Positions 25,385 to 36,574 of a stretch of DNA of 64,000 bases are shown in pieces (the first letter of the stretch is position 1; each line of letters opens with the position of its first letter). Location: the NCBI GenBank assembly GCA_017451525.1, contig JAFTOD010000005.1:310001-374000 (forward strand). The letters run 5' to 3'. This DNA comes from Paludibacteraceae bacterium. Its GTDB lineage: Bacteria > Bacteroidota > Bacteroidia > Bacteroidales > Paludibacteraceae. The notes below the pieces were generated by a model. It worked only from the letters and a program-made list of their open reading frames with translations, was not told where the DNA came from and did no database searches. A program made the translations under genes and the position numbers.

Positions 25385-27538
25385 ATGAATACAATGAACA
25401 ACAAAACCGAAAACCTACAGAAGTTCGCTATTAACCTTTGCGAACGTGCCCAACAGGGCAAACTCGACCCCGTGATTGGTCGTGACGACGAGATTCGTCG
25501 CGTGCTACAAATCCTCTCACGTCGTACAAAAAACAACCCTATCCTCATCGGCGAGCCTGGTGTGGGTAAGACCGCTATTGTGGAGGGCTTGGCGCATCGT
25601 ATCATTCGTGGCGATGTGCCTGAGAACCTCAAAAAGAAACAAATCTACTCCCTTGATATGGGTGCCCTTATCGCTGGTGCGAAATACCAAGGTGAGTTTG
25701 AAGAGCGCCTCAAAGGTGTCATCACGGAGGTGACTAGTGCGGCGGGCGAGATAATCCTTTTTATAGATGAGATACACACGCTCGTGGGCGCGGGTAAGAC
25801 CTCAGGCGCAATGGATGCCGCTAATATCCTCAAACCAGCTTTGGCACGAGGGGAGTTGCGTGCGGTGGGAGCGACCACTTTGGACGAGTATCAGAAGTAC
25901 TTTGAGACCGACAAAGCCCTTGAGCGCCGCTTCCAGATGGTGATGGTGGATGAGCCCGACGAGGCAGCTACTATCTCTATCCTGCGCGGACTGAAAGAAC
26001 GCTACGAGACCCACCACAAAGTGCGTATCAAGGATGATGCGCTGATTGCTGCGGTGACATTGTCCACGCGCTATATCACCGACCGTTTCTTGCCCGATAA
26101 GGCAATAGACTTGGTGGATGAGGCGGCAGCCAAACTGCGTTTGGAAGTGGACTCTAAGCCCGAAGAATTGGATAACCTCAACCGCCAAATTATGCAGTTG
26201 CAAATCGAGCGCGAGGCGATAAAGAAAGAGCACGACAAAGCTAAATTGGCTACTATTGAGGAGCAACTGAGCAAACTGCAAGCCGAGGCGAAAGAGATGA
26301 ACGCGCGTTGGGAGCAGGAGAAGGGCTATATGGCGACTATCCAAAACGAGAAAGCACATATCGAACAGATGAAACACGAAGCAGAGGTCGCTGAGCGCGA
26401 GGGCAACTACGGCAAGGTAGCGGAGATTCGCTATGGTCGTTTGCAGCAGGCAGAGGCGAACATCAAAGCCGCGCAAGAGGCACTACATGCGATGCAAGGC
26501 GAGAGTCTGATTAAGGAGGAGGTTGATGAGGACGATATTGCCGAAGTAGTGGCTCGTTGGACGGGCATCCCTGTAACGAAGATGATGCAATCCGAGCGAG
26601 ATAAACTCCTGCATTTGGAGGAGGAGCTGCACAAGCGTGTTGTGGGTCAAGACGAAGCTATTCAGGCAGTTAGCGATGCTATTCGTCGCAGTCGTGCGGG
26701 TTTGCAAGACCCTAAACGCCCTATCGGTTCGTTTATTTTCTTGGGCACGACGGGCGTGGGTAAGACGGAGTTGGCAAAAGCATTGGCGGAGTATCTCTTC
26801 GACGACGAGAATATGATGACGCGTATCGATATGTCGGAGTATCAGGAGAAGTTCGCTGCCACCCGATTGATTGGTGCGCCTCCAGGATATGTAGGCTATG
26901 ACGAGGGTGGACAATTGACCGAAGCTATCCGTCGCAAACCTTATAGCGTGGTGCTGTTTGACGAGATTGAGAAAGCGCATCCCGATGTGTTTAATGTGCT
27001 GTTGCAGGTGTTGGATGATGGTCGTTTGACCGACAACAAAGGTCGCACGGTGAACTTTAAGAATACGCTGATTATCTTCACCTCGAACCTCGGCAGTCAA
27101 CTCATCCGCGAGGCAATGGAACGCGAAGCCAATATCGCGGAGCCACTTTCGCGAAGCCAATTACGCGAAGCCACTACACAGCAAGTCATGGACTTGCTCC
27201 GCCAAACGATTCGCCCTGAGTTCTTGAACCGTATTGATGAGACGATTATGTTCACGCCGCTGAATGAGAGTCAGATCCGCGATATCGTCGGTTTGCAGAT
27301 TGAGGGTGTGCATAAGATGCTGATGCAGAGTGGTGTAGATTTGCGCATTACCGATGATGCGATCGATTATATCGCTCGTGAGGGTTATGATCCGCAGTTC
27401 GGTGCTCGCCCTGTGAAGCGTGCGTTGCAACGCTTGGTGCTCAACGAACTCAGCAAGGCCATCATCGCAGGTAAGGTGGACCACCAAAAGCCCGTGATTG
27501 TGGAGCTTCGCGATGGCAAATTGCATTTTAAGAACTGA
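25385..27538 (+). CDS. clpB: ClpB disaggregase without the N-terminal domain
   Basis: 717 residues versus about 860 for usual ClpB. The protein begins almost directly at the first AAA+ domain ([27 protein letters not shown]). Walker A1 GEPGVGKT (56-63), Walker [10 protein letters not shown], coiled-coil middle domain (about 265-370), Walker A2 [22 protein letters not shown], and C-terminal [12 protein letters not shown] are all present. With DnaK it pulls proteins out of aggregates. The substrate-binding N-domain (about 140 residues) is absent, and the 155 bases upstream hold only a terminator, so this is not an internal start of a longer gene. In E. coli a similar short form is made from an internal start. 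Residues about 580-598 are encoded by a 14-bp repeat array. Confidence 0.92.
27122..27177. repeat. 14-bp tandem array inside clpB
   Basis: Four 14-base units: CGCGAAGCCAATAT, CGCGGAGCCACTTT, CGCGAAGCCAATTA, CGCGAAGCCACTAC. They encode an insert between [13 protein letters not shown] and the FLNRIDE segment of the second AAA+ domain. The core CGCGAAGCCAA also occurs at about 35867. Confidence 0.8.
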
Positions 27539-27618
27539 GTGTAAATTTATTTGTACCAGTGTATGTTCTGTAGATAGGGCTTTTTCACCTCTTTTAACAC
27601 TTTCGTAAATTACTAATG

Positions 27619-27658
27619 CGCCTCTGAACGAACTGTCGTCAGAGGCGTGTTTTTTTTT
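27619..27658 (+). terminator. Intrinsic terminator of clpB
   Basis: A 9-bp stem (27619-27627 with 27639-27647), an 11-base loop, and nine T. It opens an 880-base stretch without a convincing gene (27539-28418) that holds an 11-bp array, a dispersed repeat, an inverted repeat, a promoter and two candidate RNAs. Confidence 0.85.
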
Positions 27659-27685
27659 GCGTTATTTTATATTTCCCTTGTCAAT

Positions 27686-27729
27686 TACGTAGGATATACG
27701 TAACATATACGTAAGATATACGTAGGATA
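27686..27729. repeat. 11-bp tandem array, TACGTAGGATA family (copy 2)
   Basis: Four units: TACGTAGGATA, TACGTAACATA, TACGTAAGATA, TACGTAGGATA. It differs from the array at 3582-3625 by one base and, as there, follows a terminator by a short distance. Confidence 0.9.
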
Positions 27730-27781
27730 ATCGGGCTACTAACCTAAGAAGGACCTATCTTCCTCCTGCCTGCTATTTTCC

Positions 27782-27851
27782 GCTTTCTTTCTCGAAACCA
27801 CCTCGTTACCACTTCGAAACCACTCCATTGCCATCCAGTACTTTCCCCGTA
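27782..27851 (-). repeat. Dispersed repeat, copy 2 (inverted)
   Basis: The reverse complement matches 12600-12672 from TACGGGGAAAGTA to GAGAAAGAAAGC, with a small indel in the middle. Confidence 0.7.
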
Positions 27852-27896
27852 CCCAGCTACCTGTCCTCCGCTCAACTCCCTAATATCCGCCACCTG

Positions 27897-27930
27897 TTTT
27901 TTGCTCGGCGATAACCCGCCGAGTAAAAAA
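27897..27930. repeat. Inverted repeat with T/A flanks
   Basis: CTCGGCG (27904-27910) pairs with CGCCGAG (27917-27923), extended by TTTTTT on the left and AAAAAA on the right. It lies just before the promoter at 27952. No T tract follows the stem on either strand, so it is not a standard terminator. Confidence 0.6.
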
Positions 27931-27951
27931 TCACAAGAAAATGCGATTTTT

Positions 27952-27983
27952 CTTGCAAATCCGCAAATTTTGTTGTACCTTTG
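27952..27983 (+). promoter_or_regulatory. Bacteroidota promoter not followed by an obvious gene
   Basis: CTTGCA at 27952, and TACCTTTG at 27976-27983, 20 bases between cores. The next gene starts 435 bases later, so this promoter probably drives a non-coding RNA or a very long leader. Confidence 0.7.
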
Positions 27984-27987
27984 CACC

Positions 27988-28077
27988 CGAAAGCTCAACG
28001 CCGGTGTATAGAGGGTGGGAGATGTCTCCTCTCGGAAAGCCAACTCGTTTGCCCAAACACCCCAGTCGTGGCTTTCA
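27988..28077 (+). ncRNA. Candidate structured RNA 1
   Basis: Beginning about 5 bases after the -7 box, the sequence can fold: GAAAGC (27989-27994) with GCTTTC (28071-28076), GGTGT (28003-28007) with ACACC (28057-28061), and an inner hairpin GGGAGA-TG-TCTCCT (about 28017-28030). A further GTTTGCCCAAAC hairpin lies in between. I do not recognise an Rfam family; it lacks the signatures of tmRNA, RNase P RNA and SRP RNA that I know. Confidence 0.4.
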
Positions 28078-28254
28078 AGACATATTAAAAAGGCGTTTAT
28101 TAGCGCTCTGTTCTGACTTGTAGAAACTTCGCAACTTTCAATAGGTATTCGGAACTTAGCAACGATAGATGCCCTACGGGATATAGATTGTCCCTCCTAT
28201 GCTTGTTTTGGTACATATTTTGCGTATATGTGTATGCGCACACGCGTACCTTAA

Positions 28255-28372
28255 CTATGTAGCACGGAGAATATTTATATTCGGCGTGGGCTTCGCGTTG
28301 TCGTTTCAATACCTAAGGCAATGCGAAGGCCCCTACAAGCGGAACGGCAGTAGTGCAGTCCCGCTTTTTTTG
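28255..28372 (+). ncRNA. Candidate structured RNA 2 ending in a terminator
   Basis: GTAG (28259-28262) pairs with CTAC (28333-28336), enclosing two hairpins. The first is CACG-GA-GAATAT-TT-ATATTC-GG-CGTG (28263-28288). The second pairs 28288-28300 with 28319-28331, 13 positions with one mismatch and one wobble. Then AAGCGG (28337-28342) pairs with CCGCTT (28361-28366), followed by a T run: an intrinsic terminator. A weak promoter may lie at 28219-28254 (spacing too long). It could be an independent RNA, or the end of one transcript from 27990. Confidence 0.45.
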
Positions 28373-28418
28373 TGTGTATTGGTGTTATAAACAATCTTAT
28401 TATTTAACATAAAACTAA

Positions 28419-28910
28419 ATGCTTATGCAAAAACTTACCATTTATTTAGCAGTATTGCTATTTTGCGTGTCGATGGGAGTGTCGGCACAGCAGCCAGAGG
28501 CAATGAATGTGCACAAAACAACTGGTGAAGTTACATCTACTTCATTGGTAAGCATTGAGCACATTACATTTGCGGATGATGTCTTGGTATTAACGACTTC
28601 CGAAGGCACGTTCAATCTTCCATTAGAAATGGTGGATTATATTGCTTTTGGAGAAAAAAGTGTTTCTACAAATGTTGAAAATGTAGATGCTACTGCACTT
28701 CGTATTTCATTAGTGGATAACACTATTGCTGTAGAAAGCGACTATGCCATCAATGCATTATATTTGGTGGATATGACAGGCAAAATGCTTGAGAGTCAAA
28801 AATTATCTGCGGTTACAGAAGCAAACGTTGTGTTGCCTAATTCGGGAGTATATGTTTTGTTTTTGGAAACCAGTCAAGGGTATGTTGCACACAAAATTAT
28901 TATGAATTAA
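28419..28910 (+). CDS. Small secreted protein with C-terminal sorting-like domain
   Basis: 163 residues (161 if the second ATG at 28425 is used). Signal peptide QKLTIYLAVLLFCVSMGVSA. A short segment (SIEHITFADDVLVLTTSEG... to VDYIAF) resembles the N-terminal region that follows signal peptides in many Bacteroidota secreted proteins and is also seen in the next gene (SLIDSIKFVLEE). The last about 75 residues, LYLVDMTGKMLES...GVYVLFLETSQGYVAHKIIMN, look like a type A C-terminal secretion (T9SS) signal domain. The DGR target gene starts 12 bases downstream, so the two are probably one operon. Its role in the DGR is unknown; it may be a partner of the variable protein. Confidence 0.7.
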   Translation: MLMQKLTIYLAVLLFCVSMGVSAQQPEAMNVHKTTGEVTSTSLVSIEHITFADDVLVLTTSEGTFNLPLEMVDYIAFGEKSVSTNVENVDATALRISLVDNTIAVESDYAINALYLVDMTGKMLESQKLSAVTEANVVLPNSGVYVLFLETSQGYVAHKIIMN

Positions 28911-28922
28911 AAATATTGCATT

Positions 28923-30806
28923 ATGAAAAAGATTTTACTTTCTGTATTGTCGTTGTTCGTGACAATAACAATGTTTGCGCAAAGCGAAGCAGTTCGCAAA
29001 ATGCGTTTGATTTATGATGGCGAGGTAGTATATTCTCGCGCAATAAGTTTGATAGATAGTATCAAATTTGTTTTGGAAGAAACTGAAGATGATGTCATAG
29101 GTGGTGGCGAAGTAGATAGCACTAAACAATTGTATGTTGGTGTAGTAGCGTTCAACCAATCCGTTCGCCAAATGCCTATCACCAGTGATGTGGAAGCTGT
29201 AAAAGCATTTATTAACGAGCAAACAAATGATAAGGATTTTACTTCATTTGCTTATTCTGTATCCAAAGGCAATCAAATGTTTGATGCAGAAACGTTGCCA
29301 ACCTTTGATAAAATATTTATGCTCAACTTCTCAGATGGAACAGACAACTACTCGAATATGAAATGGGGTGAAGAAGGGCGCATGGTTGCTCAACGCAATG
29401 TGTACGATACTGCTCAATACGATTTGCAGCAACGTGTAGGGTTAAACTCTTATGCTTTGGGCTTTGGTAATGATGTAGGTTTTGGAACAAATATGAAAAA
29501 AGTAGTGATGGGTTCGGGTAGTTATTTTAATGTGACTTCCGCCAACGAACTGCAATCTACTTTCAACGAGATAGCACAATCCATGCTTGCTTCTTCCAAG
29601 AATGTGTTGCTAAAAACCAACCCGGGTTATTATATAGGTGGCGAATGTAAGTATTTCCGTTTTACTTTTACTGCTGAAGGAGGTTATACAGATACAATCT
29701 ATGCACAAATGGATGGTTATCCAGCAATTGGCTATACTTTATCCATCAGTAAAGTAGCAAAGAATTATGCTTATTTTGATGCCCCAGCCAAAGGAATTGT
29801 AGATGATGAAACAGGCAAGGTACAAATCCCATTGAATAATCTGAAGTTTGTAAAGGATGGCGAAGAGTTGCAGTATAAGTTTGCAATAGAAGTGTCATTC
29901 GATGGGGAGTTGTATTATGAAGATGTAGAGGAAGCTTCTACAGCAGAAGAGATTGATAAGCGCATAGCGGTAGTATTAGTACTTGACTGCTCAAGTTCAA
30001 TGGGTGATGCTTTTGCACCAATGAAGGCAGCAGCGGTGAACTTTATCGAAACGATGGAGAAAATGGAAGTGGATGATTCAGAGCCCAATATCCCAGACCC
30101 AAATACAGGTGGTACTCAAACCTTCACAGTAAATGGAGTATCGTTTACTATGGTTGGTGTCGAAGGTGGCACTTTTACGATGGGTGCAACATCGGAACAG
30201 GGGACGAGTGACCCTTATGATGATGAATATCCTACTCACTCTGTGACATTATCTAATTTTTCTATTGGCGAAACGGAAGTAACACAAGAGTTGTGGCAAG
30301 CGGTGATGGGTAGCAACCCAAGTAATTTCTCGGGTACGAATTTACCAGTGGAAAAGGTTAGTTGGAACGACTGCCAAACATTTATCACGAAACTCAATCA
30401 ATTGACGGGTAAGCAGTTCCGTTTGCCTACCGAGGCGGAGTGGGAGTATGCTGCTCGCGGTGGCAATAAGAGTAAGGGGTATAAATATGCAGGTAGCAAC
30501 ACGTTGAGCGATGTGGCTTGGTATGGAGATAATAGCAGCAGTAAGACACACCCAGTGAAACAAAAACAAGCGAACGAATTGGGTATTTATGATATGAGTG
30601 GTAATGTATATGAGTGGTGCCAAGATTGGTTTGGTGACTACAGTAGCAGTGCGCAGACCAATCCTATGGGTCCTGCAAGTGGCTCTGGCCGCGTGAACCG
30701 TGGTGGCTGCTGGACCAGCCTCGCCTGGCGCTGCCGCGTGTCGCTTCGGCACGACGGCACGCCTACGCTCACCTACTACCACCTCGGCTTACGCCTTGTC
30801 CTATAG
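28923..30806 (+). CDS. DGR target: secreted protein with VWA-like segments and variable FGE-sulfatase domain
   Basis: 627 residues. Signal peptide about 1-20. Residues 68-220 look like the back half of a von Willebrand A domain (YVGVVAFNQSV, DFTSFAYSV, FMLNFSDGTDNYS). Residues 346-385 look like its front half (AVVLVLDCSSSMG, MIDAS Asp355-x-Ser-x-Ser359), so the parts are in swapped order. From about 400 to the end is an FGE-sulfatase (SUMF1) domain: GGTFTMGATSE, FRLPTEAEWEYAARGG, LGIYDMSGNVYEWCQDW, ending LGLRLVL. This fold is related to C-type lectins and is a known DGR display scaffold. The last 41 codons are the variable repeat. The protein is exported and probably binds ligands at the cell surface, with binding residues changed by the retroelement; the ligand is unknown. 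Confidence 0.93.
   Translation: MKKILLSVLSLFVTITMFAQSEAVRKMRLIYDGEVVYSRAISLIDSIKFVLEETEDDVIGGGEVDSTKQLYVGVVAFNQSVRQMPITSDVEAVKAFINEQTNDKDFTSFAYSVSKGNQMFDAETLPTFDKIFMLNFSDGTDNYSNMKWGEEGRMVAQRNVYDTAQYDLQQRVGLNSYALGFGNDVGFGTNMKKVVMGSGSYFNVTSANELQSTFNEIAQSMLASSKNVLLKTNPGYYIGGECKYFRFTFTAEGGYTDTIYAQMDGYPAIGYTLSISKVAKNYAYFDAPAKGIVDDETGKVQIPLNNLKFVKDGEELQYKFAIEVSFDGELYYEDVEEASTAEEIDKRIAVVLVLDCSSSMGDAFAPMKAAAVNFIETMEKMEVDDSEPNIPDPNTGGTQTFTVNGVSFTMVGVEGGTFTMGATSEQGTSDPYDDEYPTHSVTLSNFSIGETEVTQELWQAVMGSNPSNFSGTNLPVEKVSWNDCQTFITKLNQLTGKQFRLPTEAEWEYAARGGNKSKGYKYAGSNTLSDVAWYGDNSSSKTHPVKQKQANELGIYDMSGNVYEWCQDWFGDYSSSAQTNPMGPASGSGRVNRGGCWTSLAWRCRVSLRHDGTPTLTYYHLGLRLVL
30681..30806 (+). repeat. DGR variable repeat (VR)
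   Basis: 126 bases, codons 587-627 plus stop, aligned without gaps to the template repeat 32399-32524. There are 22 differences, all where the template has A: to C at 30715, 30720, 30725, 30729, 30744, 30750, 30768, 30780; to G at 30687, 30688, 30718, 30730, 30753, 30756, 30757; to T at 30708, 30721, 30726, 30745, 30769, 30774, 30777. Residues changed: 589, 596, 598-600, 602, 603, 608, 610-612, 616, 618-620. The last 26 bases (30781-30806) are identical and would include the initiation of mutagenic homology. Confidence 0.97.
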
Positions 30807-30833
30807 TTCATCTCAAAAGTTCTGAGCAAAAAG

Positions 30834-30906
30834 TACTCGCCCTTTCTAAAAGCGTGCAAGTAGGGTGCGGGACGCACCAAACGGCACGCAGAAGAAAGGG
30901 CGAGTA
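30834..30906. other. Nested three-helix inverted repeat downstream of the VR
   Basis: A 14-bp perfect outer stem (30834-30847 with 30893-30906), a 6-bp middle stem (30852-30857 with 30884-30889), and a 6-bp inner stem (30864-30869 with 30873-30878, loop GGA). It starts 28 bases after the VR stop codon. Known DGRs carry hairpin/cruciform structures just after the VR that help target recognition; it could also act as the mRNA terminator. Confidence 0.8.
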
Positions 30907-30922
30907 AAAATAAGTGATAATC

Positions 30923-31396
30923 ATGCAAATACGTGTATTTACCATACCTGCATTAGCAGGACAAGAGATGCAAGAAGAAATGAATAAGTTCCTTCGTGGT
31001 CATCGCGTGATGGAAGTAAAGCAGCAATATGATGCAGAACGAGGGTATTGGACTTTTGCGGTAAATTATATTGAGGGTTCTACTCCTAACAATAATGCTC
31101 CTGCTATTCGTCCTGAGAAAGTGGATTATAAGACGGTTCTCTCGCCCGAATCTTTTGATGTTTTTACCAAATTACGTGATGCTCGTAAACAAATCGCCAA
31201 GGACGAGAGTGTACCTGCATATGCAATATTTACGGACAAAGAGTTAGCAGATATTGCTCAATTGAGCGAACTTTCGCCTGCTGCTATGCTCAAGATAGAA
31301 GGCATTAATCACGGACGTGTAGATAAATATGGCGAGCGTATGTTACATAGAATTATTGCTCAAGTACAACCAACAGAAGCGGAAAACCTATTCTAA
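30923..31396 (+). CDS. DGR accessory protein with HRDC domain
   Basis: 157 residues from ATG 30923 (GTG at 30914 is an alternative). N-terminal part (QIRVFTIPALAGQEMQEEM, then RVMEVKQQYD) is a small domain seen as a general partner of HRDC in DGRs, as far as I recall. Residues about 77-147 are an HRDC (helicase and RNase D C-terminal) nucleic-acid-binding domain: LRDARKQIAKDESVPAYAIF, ELADIAQL, MLKIEGINHGRVDKYG. It occupies the place that avd has in the Bordetella phage DGR, and HRDC accessory genes are a described alternative. Its stop overlaps the reverse transcriptase start by one base (TAATG), so expression is probably coupled. The likely job is RNA/cDNA binding with the reverse transcriptase. 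Confidence 0.88.
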   Translation: MQIRVFTIPALAGQEMQEEMNKFLRGHRVMEVKQQYDAERGYWTFAVNYIEGSTPNNNAPAIRPEKVDYKTVLSPESFDVFTKLRDARKQIAKDESVPAYAIFTDKELADIAQLSELSPAAMLKIEGINHGRVDKYGERMLHRIIAQVQPTEAENLF

Positions 31397-32385
31397 TGAA
31401 GCGGCGTGGGTATGTGATAGAAGAGGTCTGCGAGATGGATAATCTGCGCTTGGCATATTGGAAAGCCAAACGGGGAAAGAGTGCGAAGCAGGAGGTAGTA
31501 CGCTATACCCAAGATTTGCAAGCACATTTATTAGAACTGCGGGAATTGTTATCGCAAGGAAAGATGCCTCCAATCGACTATCATTATTTTACAGTCTTTG
31601 ACCCTAAGAAACGTCAAATATGTGCTACAGTTTTTCATCAGCGCGTGCTTCAACATGCACTGATGAATGTGTGTCATGCAGACTTCGAACGCTACCAAAC
31701 CAATGATAGTTATGCCAGTCGTTTAGGAAGAGGTACGTATGCTGCATTAGAGAAAGCCATTGCCAACCAAAAACGATACCGCTATTGTTTGAAATTGGAT
31801 GTACGCAAGTACTTTGATTCAATACGGCATGATGTGTTAAAAACACTGCTCCTTCGGCTGTACAAGGATGTTCGATTGATAAAGATTTTTGAGCAGATTA
31901 TTGATAGTTATTCGGTCTGTGAGGGTAAGGGATTGCCTATCGGCAATTTGACCAGTCAGTATTTTGCCAATCACTATTTGGCGGTGGCAGACCATTATGT
32001 ACGTGAGCAGTTGCATGTGAAAGCATATGTGCGCTATATGGATGATATGCTGCTGTGGGATAATGATAAACAAACTCTCAAACAAATCGGAAAAGCGATG
32101 CAGCAGTTTATAAAAGTAGAGTTAGGGTTGCAACTGAAAGTATTTTCTCTCACTTCAACCGAGCAAATGTGTACATTCTTAGGGTATCGTATATCACGAA
32201 CTCGCCAATGTCTATCGCCTCGTAGTATTGCTCGTTATGAACAGAAAGTGCGTGATTTATATTGGCAATATAACCAAAATATGCTCACACAGGAAGATAT
32301 GAATAGCCATTTATTGCCATTGGTGGGGTTTACGATGCATGTGGCATCAGGATTTCAGCGTGCAAATGTGATGGTACGATTATAG
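31396..32385 (+). CDS. DGR reverse transcriptase
   Basis: 329 residues, a bare RT with no maturase, endonuclease or RNase H domain. Catalytic aspartates: Asp135 in KLDVRKYFDSI and Asp216-Asp217 in YVRYMDDMLLW. Motif 4 is IGNLTSQ (182-188), with SQ rather than the SP of group II intron RTs, which is diagnostic for DGRs. The C-terminal thumb contains CTFLGYRISRT. It copies the template-repeat RNA with errors at adenines, and the cDNA replaces the VR of the target gene. It is co-translated with the HRDC gene upstream, and the template repeat starts 14 bases after its stop codon. Confidence 0.96.
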   Translation: MKRRGYVIEEVCEMDNLRLAYWKAKRGKSAKQEVVRYTQDLQAHLLELRELLSQGKMPPIDYHYFTVFDPKKRQICATVFHQRVLQHALMNVCHADFERYQTNDSYASRLGRGTYAALEKAIANQKRYRYCLKLDVRKYFDSIRHDVLKTLLLRLYKDVRLIKIFEQIIDSYSVCEGKGLPIGNLTSQYFANHYLAVADHYVREQLHVKAYVRYMDDMLLWDNDKQTLKQIGKAMQQFIKVELGLQLKVFSLTSTEQMCTFLGYRISRTRQCLSPRSIARYEQKVRDLYWQYNQNMLTQEDMNSHLLPLVGFTMHVASGFQRANVMVRL

Positions 32386-32398
32386 GTAATCCATGGTA

Positions 32399-32524
32399 GG
32401 CTCTAACCGCGTGAACCGTGGTGGCAGCTGGAACAACAACGCAAGGAACTGCCGCGTGTCGAATCGGAACAACAACACGCCTACGAACACCAACAACAAC
32501 CTCGGCTTACGCCTTGTCCTATAG
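32399..32524 (+). repeat. DGR template repeat (TR)
   Basis: 126 bases, ungapped match to the VR. It has 37 adenines, largely in AAC triplets that, in the VR frame, are 13 AAC and one AAT codons. This AAY design gives wide residue choice at positions 1 and 2 while stop codons cannot arise. 22 adenines differ in the VR; no C, G or T differs. The 3' end is identical to the VR, and the first bases beyond differ (C versus T at 32525/30807). Confidence 0.97.
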
Positions 32525-32692
32525 CTCAGAGCAGATAGTGGATGCTATCATGAGATGAACACATGGACATACCTGATTGGTGGTTTGTAACTGTTGGGAG
32601 TTGCAAATAGAATCAACAAATAACATGTCGTGCACATGTATAACCTTCGCCTCAAGTAGTTATTTGTATAGTTGAACGATGCGAATGGTAAT
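32525..32692 (+). ncRNA. Probable 3' part of the DGR template RNA (spacer)
   Basis: Directly after the TR a hairpin forms: CTCA (32525-32528) with TGAG (32551-32554), and GATAG (32534-32538) with CTATC (32545-32549). A second self-complementary element ACATG...CATGT lies at 32623-32639. In the Bordetella phage DGR the RNA downstream of the TR is needed to prime cDNA synthesis. No open frame is present before lpxD. Confidence 0.55.
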
Positions 32693-33712
32693 TTACACTT
32701 TCTTCTCCAATTCTTGCAGGCGTTTCATGATGTCGGGGAGGTTCTTAAAGCCGACAATGCTGCGGCGCCAGTTCATCGCATCGATGATAGGCGACCCCTG
32801 GTACATACCCGCCTTGCGGACATTGCTTGGGATACCTGATTGTGCACCAAAAATGCAATTATCAGCGATTTCAAGGTGCCCCGCCACACCTACTTGTCCT
32901 GCAAGGATACAATGACCACCAATCTTTGACGAACCAGCAATGCCTACTTGTGAGCAGAGGAAAGTGCTCTCGCCTACTTCCACATTATGCGCTACCTGCA
33001 CAAGGTTGTCTATCTTTGCATTACGGCGAACAATAGTAGAACCCATCATTGCACGATCAACAGTCGTATTAGCACCAATCTCCACATCGTCTTCAATAAT
33101 CACATTGCCAATCTGTGGGAGTTTCTGATTTACACCCTTCGCATCGGGTTCAAAACCAAAACCATCGCTACCAATGACCACACCTGCGTGCAAGATACAA
33201 TCGTTGCCCACAACGCAGTTGTAATACACCTTCACGCCCGAATAAAGGATGGTATTATCACCAATTCGCACATTATCACCGATATAGGTATGCGGATAGA
33301 TTTGCACGCCTTTGCCCAGTTGCACATTCTTGCCGATATACGCAAATGCTCCGATATAGGCATCTTCGGGCACAGTAACGCCTTCGCTGATGAAAGAGGG
33401 CTGCTCTACGCCTTGCTTGGCAGGATTCATGGCTTTTGCCACGAGTGCAAGCAGTTGGCCCATCGCTGCGCGAGCATTCTCCACGCGGATAAGAGTGGCA
33501 TTAGTAGAACCAGAAAACTCGATGGAATCGGTCATAAGTACCACACTGGCACCCGTTTGAGGCAAGTGCGGTAAGTACTTGGCATCGCAGAGGAAAGTGA
33601 GTTGTCCCTCTTTGGCACTTTCGATAGAGCCCACGTCCCAAACTTGGCGATTGGCATCGCCTGTAATCTTACCGCCAAGCAGTGCGGCTATTTGTTGTGC
33701 AGAAAACTTCAT
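32693..33712 (-). CDS. lpxD: UDP-3-O-acylglucosamine N-acyltransferase
   Basis: 339 residues with the N-terminal uridine-binding domain ([12 protein letters not shown]) and a left-handed beta-helix of hexapeptide repeats ([20 protein letters not shown] and further). The catalytic His lies in [13 protein letters not shown]. It adds the second acyl chain in lipid A synthesis (third LpxA-C-D step) in the cytosol. It follows the HD-domain gene by 31 bases, an arrangement usual in Bacteroidales. In relatives lpxC-fabZ and lpxA normally come next; here the DGR template lies at that place, so the cluster has been broken. Confidence 0.95.
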
Positions 33713-33743
33713 AATAAAGTGAACGGTGAAAACTGATAAGTTA

Positions 33744-34979
33744 TTATTTCATTCTAAATAAGTAGCGTTTTTGTGGTTTGTAAGTGAGGGTTTCCATGTT
33801 GAGCATATCGGAAGCCTCGGCGATATCGCGAACCGTACCATCCTTGAGAAGAATACCGATGGATTCGCCCTTTTCGCTATAGGTATTCGATGTAGAGATA
33901 TGCTCCACAAAGAAGTATGCTCCTTCCTCAGGGCTAATGCCAAAGCGAGTGGCATATTCTTGAGATAACTCTTCGCGTTCGGCTGTTGTGAGCGGTTGTT
34001 CAAGGAGATTACCTTTGAAGAGGTTGCGATTGGTGAAACATTCGCACAAGATACGAAGCACTTTGTCATCGCTATTCGCCCAAACCTTGATGGCAGAGAG
34101 GAGATCAGAGTCGTCTAATTGGGCATAATGAGCGAGTAAAATGGAACTGTTTTGTATGTTCGATTGCAGAAAATAATGCAACGCAGGCGAAGCAAAAAGT
34201 TGTACACCAGCAGCTATTAAATGCTTAGCGCGAGTGAGGATTTTGATAAGTAGTTGTTCGGCTGCCACGCTGGTATGGTGCAGATATACTTGCCAATACA
34301 TCAGTCGGCGAGCTACGAGGAACTTCTCTACAGAATAAATACCTTTGGCTTCTACTACAAGGTGGTTGTCCACCACATTCATCATCTTAAGAATACGCGC
34401 ACTGGCTACACTACCTTCGGTCACTCCGCAGAAGAAGGAGTCACGACATAAATAATCCAAACGATCTACATCTAGCTGCGAAGAAATAAGCTGATGAAGA
34501 AAATGCTTTGGGTAGTTATCTTGGAAGATATCTATTGCAAGTGATAACACTTGTTCATAGTTTTCCGATTCAAGTTTTCCCATTTCACTTCTAATCTCCT
34601 GCATCATCATCAGACTGATGTCCTCGTGCGACATACCTTCGGGTAACATGCCTGCCTCCTCAAACACATGGGAGAAAGGACCATGACCAATATCGTGCAT
34701 AAGGATGGCAGCCATAGAAGCAGTGGCTTCATTGTCGGTAATCTCCACTCCTTTCTCACGGAGCGAAGTGATGGCCTCGTGCATGAGATGCATCGCTCCT
34801 AGCGAGTGTAAGAAGCGGCTATGCATCGCACCTGGATAGACAAAGAAACTCAAACCTAACTGACGAATGCGGTTGAGGCGTTGCATAAAAGGATGTTGCA
34901 AAATATGAAACAGTACACCATCGGGAATACTGAGGAAACCAAAAACAGGATCGTTGATAATTTTACGCGTCTTTGTCAT
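33744..34979 (-). CDS. HD-domain phosphohydrolase (dGTPase-like)
   Basis: 411 residues from the ATG at 34979 ([20 protein letters not shown]); the longer frame to 35126 covers the promoter. HD metal ligands are visible: [15 protein letters not shown] and [19 protein letters not shown], then a distal Asp in [18 protein letters not shown]. The family is related to SAMHD1/dGTPases and is a likely nucleotide phosphohydrolase; the exact substrate is unknown. It is divergently transcribed from the first deoxynucleoside kinase gene, and the two may balance deoxynucleotide pools. Confidence 0.88.
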
Positions 34980-35023
34980 AGATTTACTCTCTAGTTCTCT
35001 ACATGAGTTTACTAAATAATGTG

Positions 35024-35055
35024 CAAAGGTACGGAAAAAATCACATGCATGCAAA
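35024..35055 (-). promoter_or_regulatory. Promoter of the HD gene and lpxD
   Basis: Minus-strand TTTGCATG (from 35055), 20 bases, TACCTTTG (35031-35024). It fixes the HD gene start at 34979. Confidence 0.8.
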
Positions 35056-35081
35056 TTTATTGGTAAAAAAGTTAATGGATA

Positions 35082-35113
35082 CTTGCGTATGTCTGTTATT
35101 TTTTGTAACTTTG
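35082..35113 (+). promoter_or_regulatory. Promoter of the first deoxynucleoside kinase
   Basis: CTTG at 35082-35085, 20 bases, TAACTTTG at 35106-35113. The start codon at 35125 is only 11 bases beyond, so the mRNA has almost no leader. Confidence 0.7.
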
Positions 35114-35124
35114 CACCGAAAATC

Positions 35125-35766
35125 ATGTATATAGCGATTTCGGGAAATATTGGTGCAGGGAAAACAACATTGACAAAGATGTTGGCGAAGTACTATGGCT
35201 GGGAACCAAGATTCGAGTCGGTGAGTTTTAATCCGTATTTGGAAGATTATTACACCGACATCGAACGTTGGTCGTTTGCCGTAGAGACATATTTCTTGAA
35301 GGAGCGTTTCAAAGATATGCTCCGCATCAACGAGGTGGGGCACACCATAGTACAAGATAGAAGTATATTTGAAGGTGTGTACGTGTTTGTAACCAACAAC
35401 TATATGCGGGGCGACTTGTCCGAGCGTGATTATCAGACATATATGGAGCTGTTTGAACATATGAAGCGGATGATGAAGTTGCCCGATTTGATGATTTATC
35501 TGCGCAAATCAGTGCCTTCGCTCATCGCACAAATACAAAAACGTGGACGCGATTATGAAAAGACAATGCAGATAGATTATTTGCGCGATTTGAACGAACG
35601 ATACGAGGATTTTATCTTCAAACAATACGAAGGCAGAGTGCTGGTGATAGAGAGCGATGGGATGGATTTTGAGGGGAATGCTGAGGATTTTAGGAAGGTG
35701 ATCAATAAGATAGATGCGGAGCTGTTTGGGCTTTTTAGTGCCGAAGCATTTGCTTCGGGTACGTAG
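35125..35766 (+). CDS. Deoxynucleoside kinase (copy 1)
   Basis: 213 residues from ATG 35125, chosen because the upstream frame (from 35083) overlaps the promoter and the protein then starts YIAISGNIGAGKTTL, the P-loop. Other kinase signatures: QDRSIFEGVYVF (DRS/ERS motif) and LPDLMIYLRKSV, with RGRDYEKTMQIDYL. It phosphorylates deoxynucleosides for salvage. A paralogue follows after 157 bases, and such pairs with different base preference are known in Bacteroidota. The last residues (EAFASGT) and the stop are encoded by a CCGAAGC-ATTT-GCTTCGG hairpin repeat, so the natural C-terminus has been altered. Confidence 0.9.
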   Translation: MYIAISGNIGAGKTTLTKMLAKYYGWEPRFESVSFNPYLEDYYTDIERWSFAVETYFLKERFKDMLRINEVGHTIVQDRSIFEGVYVFVTNNYMRGDLSERDYQTYMELFEHMKRMMKLPDLMIYLRKSVPSLIAQIQKRGRDYEKTMQIDYLRDLNERYEDFIFKQYEGRVLVIESDGMDFEGNAEDFRKVINKIDAELFGLFSAEAFASGT

Positions 35767-35916
35767 GTGGTCGCCGTAGGCGACGAAAATGGCACCTATG
35801 GTGCGAACTGGGGTCTTCGACGAAAATTACGTAAAACCACATTTCGTAAGCGAAGCGCACCATCAACGCGAAGCCAACAACGTGAGCGAAGCGAACTAAT
35901 AACATGAACAAAGTGA
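35741..35916. repeat. Mini-hairpin and 22-bp repeat block between the kinase genes
   Basis: Consecutive hairpins CCGAAGC/GCTTCGG, GTCGCC-GTA-GGCGAC and GGCACC-TAT-GGTGC. They are followed by CGCGAAGCCAA (as in clpB) and two diverged 22-base units, AACGTGAGCGAAGCGAACTA.. and AACATGAACAAAGTGAATTA.., running to just before the second kinase start at 35924. Confidence 0.7.
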
Positions 35917-35923
35917 ATTAATT

Positions 35924-36574
35924 ATGCATATAGCAGTAGCAGGAAATATTGGTTGCGGCAAGACGACGCTGACCAACATGCTCGCCAAACATTATGGTTG
36001 GGAGCCACGTTTTGAGAGTGTGGAGTTTAATCCTTACTTGGAAGATTTTTATGCGGATATGGGCCGCTGGTCGTTTAACTTGCAAGTCTATTTCTTGAAC
36101 AAACGCTTCAAGGATGTGGTGGATATTTCGAAAGAAGATAAATATATCATCCAAGACCGCACTATCTACGAAGATGCACGTATCTTTGCGCCCAACTTGC
36201 ACCGTCAAGGGTATATGTCGGACCGCGACTTCGATAACTACCGCGATCTCTTCGACCTGATGATGTCGCTCGTGAAGATGCCTGACTTGATGATTTATAT
36301 CCGCTCAACTATTCCTAACTTGGTGGCACAGATTCAGAAACGTGGTCGTGCTTACGAAGCAAGTATGCGTATTGACTATTTGCAGGGATTGAACGAACTC
36401 TACGAGAACTGGATTGCTGATTACAAGGGCAAACTACTGATTATAGATGGTGATACGATTAAGTTCGGCGATAATCCAGAAGACTTCCGCCATGTTACCG
36501 ACCGCATTGATGCGGAACTCTTTGGCTTGTTCCCATTTGAGAAAACGGAAGAAAGAGGAAAAGAGGTGAAGTAA
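35924..36574 (+). CDS. Deoxynucleoside kinase (copy 2)
   Basis: 216 residues. P-loop AGNIGCGKTTLTNMLAKHYG, QDRTIYEDARIFAPN, LPDLMIY-type segment (MPDLMIYIRSTI), and RGRAYEASMRIDYLQGL. About half of the residues match copy 1, so the two arose by duplication but have had time to diverge. Members of this family in Bacteroidota split into deoxyadenosine- and deoxyguanosine/deoxycytidine-preferring types; sequence alone does not tell which is which here. Confidence 0.92.
   Translation: MHIAVAGNIGCGKTTLTNMLAKHYGWEPRFESVEFNPYLEDFYADMGRWSFNLQVYFLNKRFKDVVDISKEDKYIIQDRTIYEDARIFAPNLHRQGYMSDRDFDNYRDLFDLMMSLVKMPDLMIYIRSTIPNLVAQIQKRGRAYEASMRIDYLQGLNELYENWIADYKGKLLIIDGDTIKFGDNPEDFRHVTDRIDAELFGLFPFEKTEERGKEVK

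What the first reader, a model, noticed from the sequence alone, without database searches (positions are those of the whole stretch)
28419..32692. Complete diversity-generating retroelement with a secreted lectin-fold target
Seen: target gene ending in a VR, HRDC gene, RT with YMDD and IGNLTSQ, then a TR, all on one strand and tightly spaced. The gapless 126-base VR/TR alignment has 22 differences, all at TR adenines (8 to C, 7 to G, 7 to T), out of 37 adenines; the other 89 positions are identical. Known: this pattern is unique to DGR mutagenic retrohoming. Inferred: the cassette is or was recently active, and it diversifies 15 residues of a surface ligand-binding site.
Basis: partly seen in the sequence, partly recalled or inferred. 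Interest (0 to 1): 0.97.

Follow-up and report, generated by a model that had tools for sequence, protein, structure and literature searches.

The report
Self-mutating surface protein gene cassette
A gut bacterium carries a known kind of targeted-mutation cassette, a diversity-generating retroelement, that rewrites the binding tip of what looks like a secreted protein; the unusual part is the tip's carrier, a protein domain whose segments seem to run in a rotated order.

Summary
VR 30681-30806 and TR 32399-32524 align without gaps; 22 of 126 positions differ, all 22 at TR adenines (8 C, 7 G, 7 T), 0 of 89 elsewhere (chance 4.6e-15). The RT has the SQ motif and groups with DGR-type RTs (100/99), in a nine-row subclade whose loci all hold an HRDC gene. 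The target's C-terminus is an FGE domain whose best solved match is a Treponema denticola variable protein. So this is a genuine DGR of the known VR-HRDC-RT-TR kind, intact and probably recently active, in a draft genome of a probable Paludibacteraceae. The new part is the carrier: residues 61-384 read as a von Willebrand A domain in circularly permuted order. At E 1e-4 Pfam VWA matches 2 of 11 family members as encoded, 9 of 11 rotated, 4 of 11 in an order control. Relatives carry this module with other C-terminal domains. Three literature searches gave no permuted vWA (passages of five of the seven listed papers). Folding was unavailable. The cassette is a new member of a known kind; its carrier a new variant.

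The parts
28419..28910 (+). small secreted-type gene (163 aa) with a T9SS type A sorting tail, directly upstream of the target; proposed partner or anchor (inferred)
   Evidence: NCBIfam TIGR04183 25.6 bits over its 23-bit cut-off (the Pfam model, 18.6 bits, is under its cut-off of 27); tblastn match upstream of the module gene in 4 of 10 loci, one of them partial
28923..30806 (+). DGR target gene, 627 aa
28923..28982 (+). signal-peptide-like start of the target (aa 1-20), judged by eye
   Evidence: sequence; no prediction tool used
29127..29603 (+). vWA segment from strand 2 to the last helix (aa 69-227), encoded first
   Evidence: rotation test; in the relative L067 the same segment matches VWA profile 32-173 in its native order
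29604..29957 (+). linker region (aa 228-345) between the two vWA segments; fold unknown
   Evidence: position between the two segments
29958..30074 (+). vWA first strand and helix with the DxSxS motif (aa 346-384), encoded last
   Evidence: Pfam VWA profile positions 2-32 at aa 350-379
30147..30800 (+). FGE-sulfatase / C-type-lectin-type display domain (aa 409-626)
   Evidence: Pfam 165.8 bits; best PDB match 2y3c, T. denticola variable protein 1, E 1.2e-47
30681..30806 (+). variable repeat (VR), includes the stop codon
30834..30906 (+). long branched inverted repeat 27 bases after VR, no T-tract after it on this strand; candidate target-recognition hairpin/cruciform
   Evidence: DNA fold of 30803-30915: -30.7 kcal/mol, z -9.6; RNA z -9.55
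30923..31396 (+). HRDC accessory protein gene
   Evidence: Pfam HRDC 60 bits
31396..32385 (+). DGR reverse transcriptase gene
32399..32524 (+). template repeat (TR)

Best explanation
A complete cellular DGR of the VR-HRDC-RT-TR type. The RT copies the TR RNA and misreads adenines; the cDNA replaces the VR (mutagenic retrohoming), so the last 42 codons of the target (stop included) can be rewritten opposite 37 TR adenines (19, 15 and 3 by codon position) while TR stays fixed. Shown: the TR/VR pattern, the DGR-type RT, the HRDC linkage and the family of the variable domain. From established knowledge of DGRs: the homing mechanism. Inferred: that HRDC stands in for Avd in this lineage, and that the hairpin after VR marks the target site. 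The target is a modular, probably exported protein: signal peptide, a circularly permuted vWA domain (with a linker region between its two segments), then the FGE-type domain that bears the VR. The permutation is supported by sequence only. Surface display, possibly with the T9SS-tailed upstream gene, is inferred.
For: 22 of 22 differences at TR A. RT: best PDB match 8ub7 at 126 bits against 68.5 for the best group II RT; the 18 rows I labelled DGR-type (window, 11 relatives, 6 phage or plasmid RTs) stand together at 100/99. HRDC in 11 of 13 relatives' RT loci, one of them an exact copy of another. TR/VR pairs in 11 of those 13; without the copy, 185 of 191 mismatches in 10 pairs lie at TR A, but the scan's score and its 70% print filter both favour A. 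Related pair L058/L059: one TR difference, mirrored in the two VRs; 14 of 16 VR differences over shared TR A, one at the mirrored base, one at a TR T. The target tip's best solved match is 2y3c. Rotation: the window module's VWA score goes from 22.9 bits, best stretch profile 2-32, to 36.9 bits over profile 2-173 of 174; family 2 of 11 to 9 of 11 members, and 4 of 11 when the linker is cut out but the native order kept. 16 of 16 family proteins have one strand-2 motif followed, 282-306 residues on, by one LDCxxS motif.
Against: No second allele of this species is held, so activity of this very copy is not shown. 6 of 191 mismatches in the relatives' pairs are not at TR A. No remote VR. Profile searches of the module against solved structures found nothing at E 0.01 in either order, and 2 of 11 members stay without a VWA match at E 1e-4 after rotation. 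Strong hairpins also follow family genes without a VR (L112, L115, L116), so a hairpin alone is not a DGR sign.
Confidence: 0.9

Rival explanations
1. The cassette is a recently silenced DGR: parts intact but no longer homing, and the VR is a frozen allele.
For: A close homologue of the target (G287/L111) keeps a VR-like tip, but its 96%-complete genome gave no RT match at E 0.001 and no second copy of its VR-like stretch at E 0.01, so loss may happen in this family.
Against: The ORFs are intact, YMDD is present, and 0 of 89 non-A positions have drifted between TR and VR.
Confidence: 0.12
2. The vWA is not permuted: the protein holds remnants of two vWA domains, one lacking its start and one lacking its end.
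For: Only sequence evidence is available; the two segments lie 118 residues apart, and no solved structure was matched in either order.
Against: 16 of 16 family proteins have exactly one of each motif, in the same order; L115 ends 25 residues after the start of the LDCxxS motif (as G025), and L118 ends shortly after it. The two fragments together fill VWA profile positions 2-173 of 174 in the window.
Confidence: 0.12
3. The target belongs to the known vWA-FGE DGR targets of MoxR/VMAP ternary conflict systems rather than to a surface display system.
For: Such vWA-FGE fusions under DGRs are described in PMC7159879 and PMC10907252 (passages).
Against: The target starts with a signal-peptide-like sequence (by eye). 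Ten neighbouring proteins scanned with Pfam at E 1e-10 are housekeeping types; the only AAA+ protein among them is Clp-type (ClpB_D2-small; it also has a weaker AAA_5 match). The rest of the genome was not searched for MoxR or VMAP.
Confidence: 0.05

Closest known systems
Treponema denticola HRDC-type DGRs with TvpA-like FGE targets (PMC4891356, passages)
   Same: FGE target, HRDC accessory gene next to the RT, adenine mutagenesis; the best solved match of this tip is T. denticola variable protein 1, 2y3c (that this is TvpA is recalled)
   Different: in the passages the HRDC gene lies between TR and RT and overlaps RT, and targets are called lipoproteins; 'von Willebrand' has 0 hits in that paper. 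Here the order is VR-HRDC-RT-TR and the carrier is a permuted vWA. The T. denticola RT was not in my tree
Bordetella phage BPP-1 DGR
   Same: the RT of the related phage BMP-1 lies in the same DGR group; a hairpin after VR, 4-34 bp away in phage-type DGRs (PMC3240598, passages)
   Different: BPP-1 uses Avd and a phage tail protein as target (recalled); here HRDC and a cellular protein
vWA-FGE DGR targets of VMAP ternary conflict systems (PMC7159879, PMC10907252, passages)
   Same: vWA plus a C-terminal variable FGE domain in one target
   Different: those sit with MoxR ATPases; here a signal-peptide-like start, no MoxR or VMAP among 10 neighbours, and permuted segment order
Same-genus DGRs fetched here (L054, L056, L058, L059)
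   Same: FGE target, HRDC, RT, TR in the same order
   Different: their target N-termini look unrelated to the vWA module (by eye; for L058 Pfam gives FGE only), and the three of their RTs in the tree form a group (100/99) without this RT

Membership tests
Diversity-generating retroelement | TR/VR pair with substitutions confined to TR adenines | tested here: met
   22 of 22 at A, 0 of 89 elsewhere
Diversity-generating retroelement | RT of the DGR group with the SQ motif instead of QGxxxSP | tested here: met
   IGNLTSQ; 18 rows labelled DGR-type together at 100/99 against 4 group II and 8 retron-like rows
Diversity-generating retroelement | VR at the 3' end of a target gene in a C-type-lectin-type domain | tested here: met
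   Pfam FGE aa 409-626, 2y3c E 1.2e-47; the fold itself was not modelled
Diversity-generating retroelement | accessory protein (Avd or HRDC) | tested here: met
   HRDC, 60 bits; none of the four proteins scanned matches bAvd
Diversity-generating retroelement | hairpin/cruciform just downstream of VR | tested here: inconclusive
   strong hairpin at 30834-30906, but hairpins also follow family genes without VR
Diversity-generating retroelement | mutagenic homing in vivo (several VR alleles over an invariant TR) | not testable with these tools
   one genome per species is held; evidence from two related cassettes only
von Willebrand factor A domain, circularly permuted | both segments complete one VWA profile when rotated | tested here: met
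   9 of 11 rotated against 2 of 11 native and 4 of 11 order control at E 1e-4
von Willebrand factor A domain, circularly permuted | single Rossmann-type sheet with a MIDAS in a structure | not testable with these tools
   prediction not accepted
VMAP ternary conflict system | MoxR ATPase and VMAP neighbours | tested here: not met
   10 flanking proteins scanned at E 1e-10, no such match; whole genome not searched for them
Group II intron or retron RT | clusters with those RTs, QGxxxSP motif | tested here: not met
   NCBIfam group II model 97 bits against a 300-bit cut-off

The most novel reading that the evidence does not exclude
The target defines a new family of exported carrier modules: a circularly permuted vWA in which the MIDAS-bearing first strand and helix come last and lead straight into an exchangeable C-terminal binding domain. 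Members in Bacteroidales and a Spirochaetota MAG carry FGE, weakly Lcl_C-like, other or no tips, and in this lineage a DGR supplies a hypervariable tip. The rotation would couple tip binding to the metal site, or let the last strand complete a neighbouring subunit's sheet and build a filament.
Probability: 0.25. Interest if true: 0.65.

Novelty: new variant of a known kind. Interest (0 to 1): 0.42.

Why it matters
It adds a clean, intact HRDC-type DGR among chromosomal housekeeping genes of a gut Bacteroidales, and a natural test set for HRDC-dependent homing. The permuted vWA shows that DGR tips can ride on interchangeable carriers, and it gives a concrete fold prediction that one structure would settle. 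The G287 homologue, with a VR-like tip but no cassette found, may show what is left after a DGR is lost.

Tried and rejected
Other RT types: rejected by tree and motifs. Remote VRs in the own genome: none found. RT searches by peptide patterns in viral contigs and genome contigs found no relative, and the module none in viral contigs. Profile search of the module against PDB: nothing at E 0.01 in either order. Rfam: nothing at gathering in 26000-36000, only sub-threshold matches in the leader and the VR-TR stretch. A degenerate VR pattern in viral contigs gave 84 stretches, not followed because the pattern is too loose. Empty site: lpxD is followed by lpxC-like and lpxA-like genes in the 3 relatives whose ORFs I listed (names by recall from the sequences) but by the cassette here; clpB was not found in the 5 fetched stretches beside lpxD, so there is no clean empty site. 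An alignment of 7 stretches after TR showed a block conserved in relatives that the window matches only partly; not pursued. PADLOC gave generic RT, HRDC and AAA matches and none for the target or the upstream gene.

Rows left out before counts: RT tree: of 12 retron-like loci I chose 9, and L135 dropped out because no frame was recovered; L013 and L017, copies or near-copies of used RTs, were not put in; phage, plasmid and group II rows were my choice from spread listings. TR/VR scan: 19 stretches scanned, the window included; only pairs with at least 5 mismatches and 70% at A were printed; L062 and L066 (with RT) and L067, L069-L072 (without) gave no DGR-like pair; L055 was dropped as identical to L054. 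L119 was left out of the module alignments because its frame is broken.
Full report
Observation. VR 30681-30806 and TR 32399-32524 align without gaps over 126 bases; all 22 differences are at TR adenines (8 C, 7 G, 7 T of 37 A) and the 89 other positions are identical. The chance that 22 random mismatches all hit adenines is 4.6e-15. At protein level 15 residues differ; 13 of 14 AAN codons are changed; no adenine change in the 41 sense codons can make a stop; about 4.5e19 variants are possible if every TR adenine can change. In the own genome (1.84 Mb, 84% complete) the TR query gives the TR, the VR and four short matches at E 1 to 3.5.

The machinery. RT 31396-32385 matches RVT_1 and the PHROG reverse transcriptase phrog_1423 at E 2e-85. 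Against PDB its best match is 8ub7, 126 bits, ahead of group II intron RTs at 68.5 bits and below; that 8ub7 is the BPP-1 DGR RT is recalled, not from the call. In a 30-row tree the 18 rows I labelled DGR-type (window, 11 relatives, 6 phage or plasmid RTs) form one group (100/99), apart from 4 group II and 8 retron-like RTs, and this RT lies in a nine-row subclade (100/100). All 18 carry a GxxxSQ motif; the 4 group II rows and 6 of 8 retron-like rows carry QGxxxSP, the other 2 neither. The SQ motif as a DGR feature is from PMC3521204 (passages).

HRDC. The gene at 30923-31396 has an HRDC domain (60 bits). A tblastn match lies in 11 of 13 relatives' RT loci (L055 being an exact copy of part of L054); the two without are L063 and L065, and L065 has a bAvd-like protein. 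None of six fetched phage or plasmid RT stretches has it. All nine rows of the RT subclade come from loci with HRDC. HRDC as a DGR accessory is known from Treponema denticola (PMC4891356, passages).

Relatives show the same mutagenesis. RT relatives at E 1e-20 occur in 12 of 200 genomes searched, the own genome included. Of 13 relatives' loci with an RT, 11 gave a TR/VR pair. Without the copy L055, 185 of 191 mismatches in 10 pairs are at TR A. The scan's score favours A mismatches and only pairs with at least 70% at A were printed, so this is supportive, not independent. The most telling pair is L058/L059: RTs 969 of 1011 bases identical, targets upstream of the VR 89% identical over 1099 aligned columns, TRs differ at one base, and each VR carries the base of its own TR there. 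Of 16 VR differences, 14 lie over adenines shared by both TRs, one is that mirrored base, one is at a TR T. The simplest reading is that both VRs have been rewritten from their own TRs since these cassettes parted.

The target. Pfam finds FGE-sulfatase at aa 409-626 (165.8 bits) and, below its cut-off, only the first 32 positions of VWA at aa 350-379. The best solved match of the tip is T. denticola variable protein 1, 2y3c (E 1.2e-47), ahead of FGE enzymes. A search of 399 genomes with aa 61-384 found the module in 15 at E 1e-5, the own genome included, and 10 loci were found in GTDB contigs: five Paludibacteraceae, one other Bacteroidales, Candidatus Aphodosoma, Candidatus Symbiothrix, one Bacteroidia and one Spirochaetota MAG. 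Three of the Paludibacteraceae contigs have the same lengths as contigs of same-genus genomes here, so the host is most likely of that family; its own name was not given.

Permutation. The module starts with what looks like vWA strand 2 and ends with the DxSxS first strand and helix. Rotating the segments in silico raised the window's VWA score from 22.9 bits (best stretch profile 2-32) to 36.9 bits over profile 2-173 of 174. The Spirochaetota copy rose from 15.3 bits (profile 38-168) to 31.2 (2-168). A distant copy (G041), whose first segment alone gave no match, gave VWA_2 at 29.1 bits when rotated. In the relative L067 (G058) the first segment matches VWA profile 32-173 in place (24.0 bits). 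Over 11 members at E 1e-4: native 2, rotated 9, linker removed but order kept 4. In 16 of 16 family proteins one strand-2 motif is followed, 282-306 residues later, by one LDCxxS motif, and one protein (G025/L115) ends 25 residues after the start of that motif. Profile searches against PDB found nothing in either order, and folding was unavailable, so the structure is untested.

Exchangeable tips. The module carries FGE in the window, L111, L113 and L114; weak, below-cut-off Lcl_C matches in L091 (the same gene as L112) and L116; Flg_new repeats in L116 and L117 and a T9SS tail in L117; no Pfam match in the tip of L067; and no tip in L115. FGE and module are 78% and 81% identical between window and G287/L111, so that fusion is old. 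G287's tip is VR-like: 10 of 14 TR-AAN codons differ in residue against 6 of 27 others (Fisher P 0.006; by base 16 of 37 A against 21 of 89 non-A, P 0.03), and its gene is followed by a hairpin with the same GGTGCGGGACGCACC core. That core occurs exactly once in the own genome. No RT match at E 0.001 and no second copy of the tip was found in G287. A lost cassette is the simplest reading, but a lone fast-evolving tip, or a gap in the assembly, is not excluded.

Hairpin. 27 bases after VR lies a 14-pair outer stem with inner stems, DNA fold -30.7 kcal/mol, z -9.6, 0 of 200 shuffles as low; the stretch after TR has z -1.2, 21 of 200. It has no T-tract after it on the + strand. In RNA folds with 60 shuffles, z after VR ranges from -7.4 to -1.1 in 11 DGR loci (G287's tip -5.9), and after TR from -2.2 to +1.1 in 10. 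In BPP-1 such a structure is required, and in phage-type DGRs it lies 4-34 bp from VR (PMC3240598, passages). Against over-reading: L112, L115 and L116, family genes without a VR, also have strong downstream hairpins (z -4.0 to -6.5), which look like terminators.

Export and partner. The target begins with a signal-peptide-like stretch (by eye). The gene just upstream has a T9SS sorting tail (TIGR04183) and has a match upstream of the module gene in 4 of 10 loci. A GldK over the cut-off (510 bits) shows that a T9SS component is in this genome. Surface display is inferred.

Known versus new. DGRs, HRDC accessories, FGE targets and even vWA-FGE targets are published; the last in MoxR-linked conflict systems (PMC7159879, PMC10907252, passages). 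MoxR and VMAP were not found among 10 neighbouring proteins. Searches for a permuted vWA listed 7 different papers in all. I looked up passages on permutation or vWA in 5 of them (PMC8195603, PMC7824862, PMC9503650, PMC2430557, PMC7911831): the permutation there concerns other proteins or virus genome ends. PMC11771901 and PMC4822843 were seen as listings only. No paper held in the library has both Paludibacteraceae and diversity-generating retroelement. The library lacks most subscription journals. I rate the cassette ordinary and the carrier a new variant.

Noticed in passing
L111 (G287 contig C1) 4519-6405: Close homologue of the target with a VR-like tip and the same hairpin core, but no RT match or second tip copy found in that 96%-complete genome: a possible relic of a lost DGR.
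   Followed up: partly
window 32693-35126: lpxD with its HD-domain neighbour is followed by lpxC-like and lpxA-like genes in the 3 relatives listed, but by the DGR cassette here, so a rearrangement breakpoint lies just after lpxD.
   Followed up: partly
L054 and L055 (G062 C98, G008 C48): The whole 3,684-base G008 contig, VR included, is identical to part of another same-genus genome held as a different species; possible cross-binning or very recent transfer.
   Followed up: no
L070 (G025 C108) and L071 (G053 C112): Several FGE-type matches close together, three of them in one 1210-aa open frame in G025, in genomes without a good DGR RT match.
   Followed up: no
window 28069-28141: Noncoding stretch 77% identical over 73 bases to a stretch of a same-genus genome at another place (L175 3641-3711); no Rfam family at gathering.
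   Followed up: partly
window 32525-32640 and the stretches after TR in L054, L056-L060: A conserved block follows the TR in related DGRs and may be part of the DGR RNA; the window matches it only partly.
   Followed up: partly
window 27976-27983: TACCTTTG resembles a Bacteroidetes-type -7 promoter box (recalled consensus), about 435 bases upstream of the first gene of the cluster.
   Followed up: no
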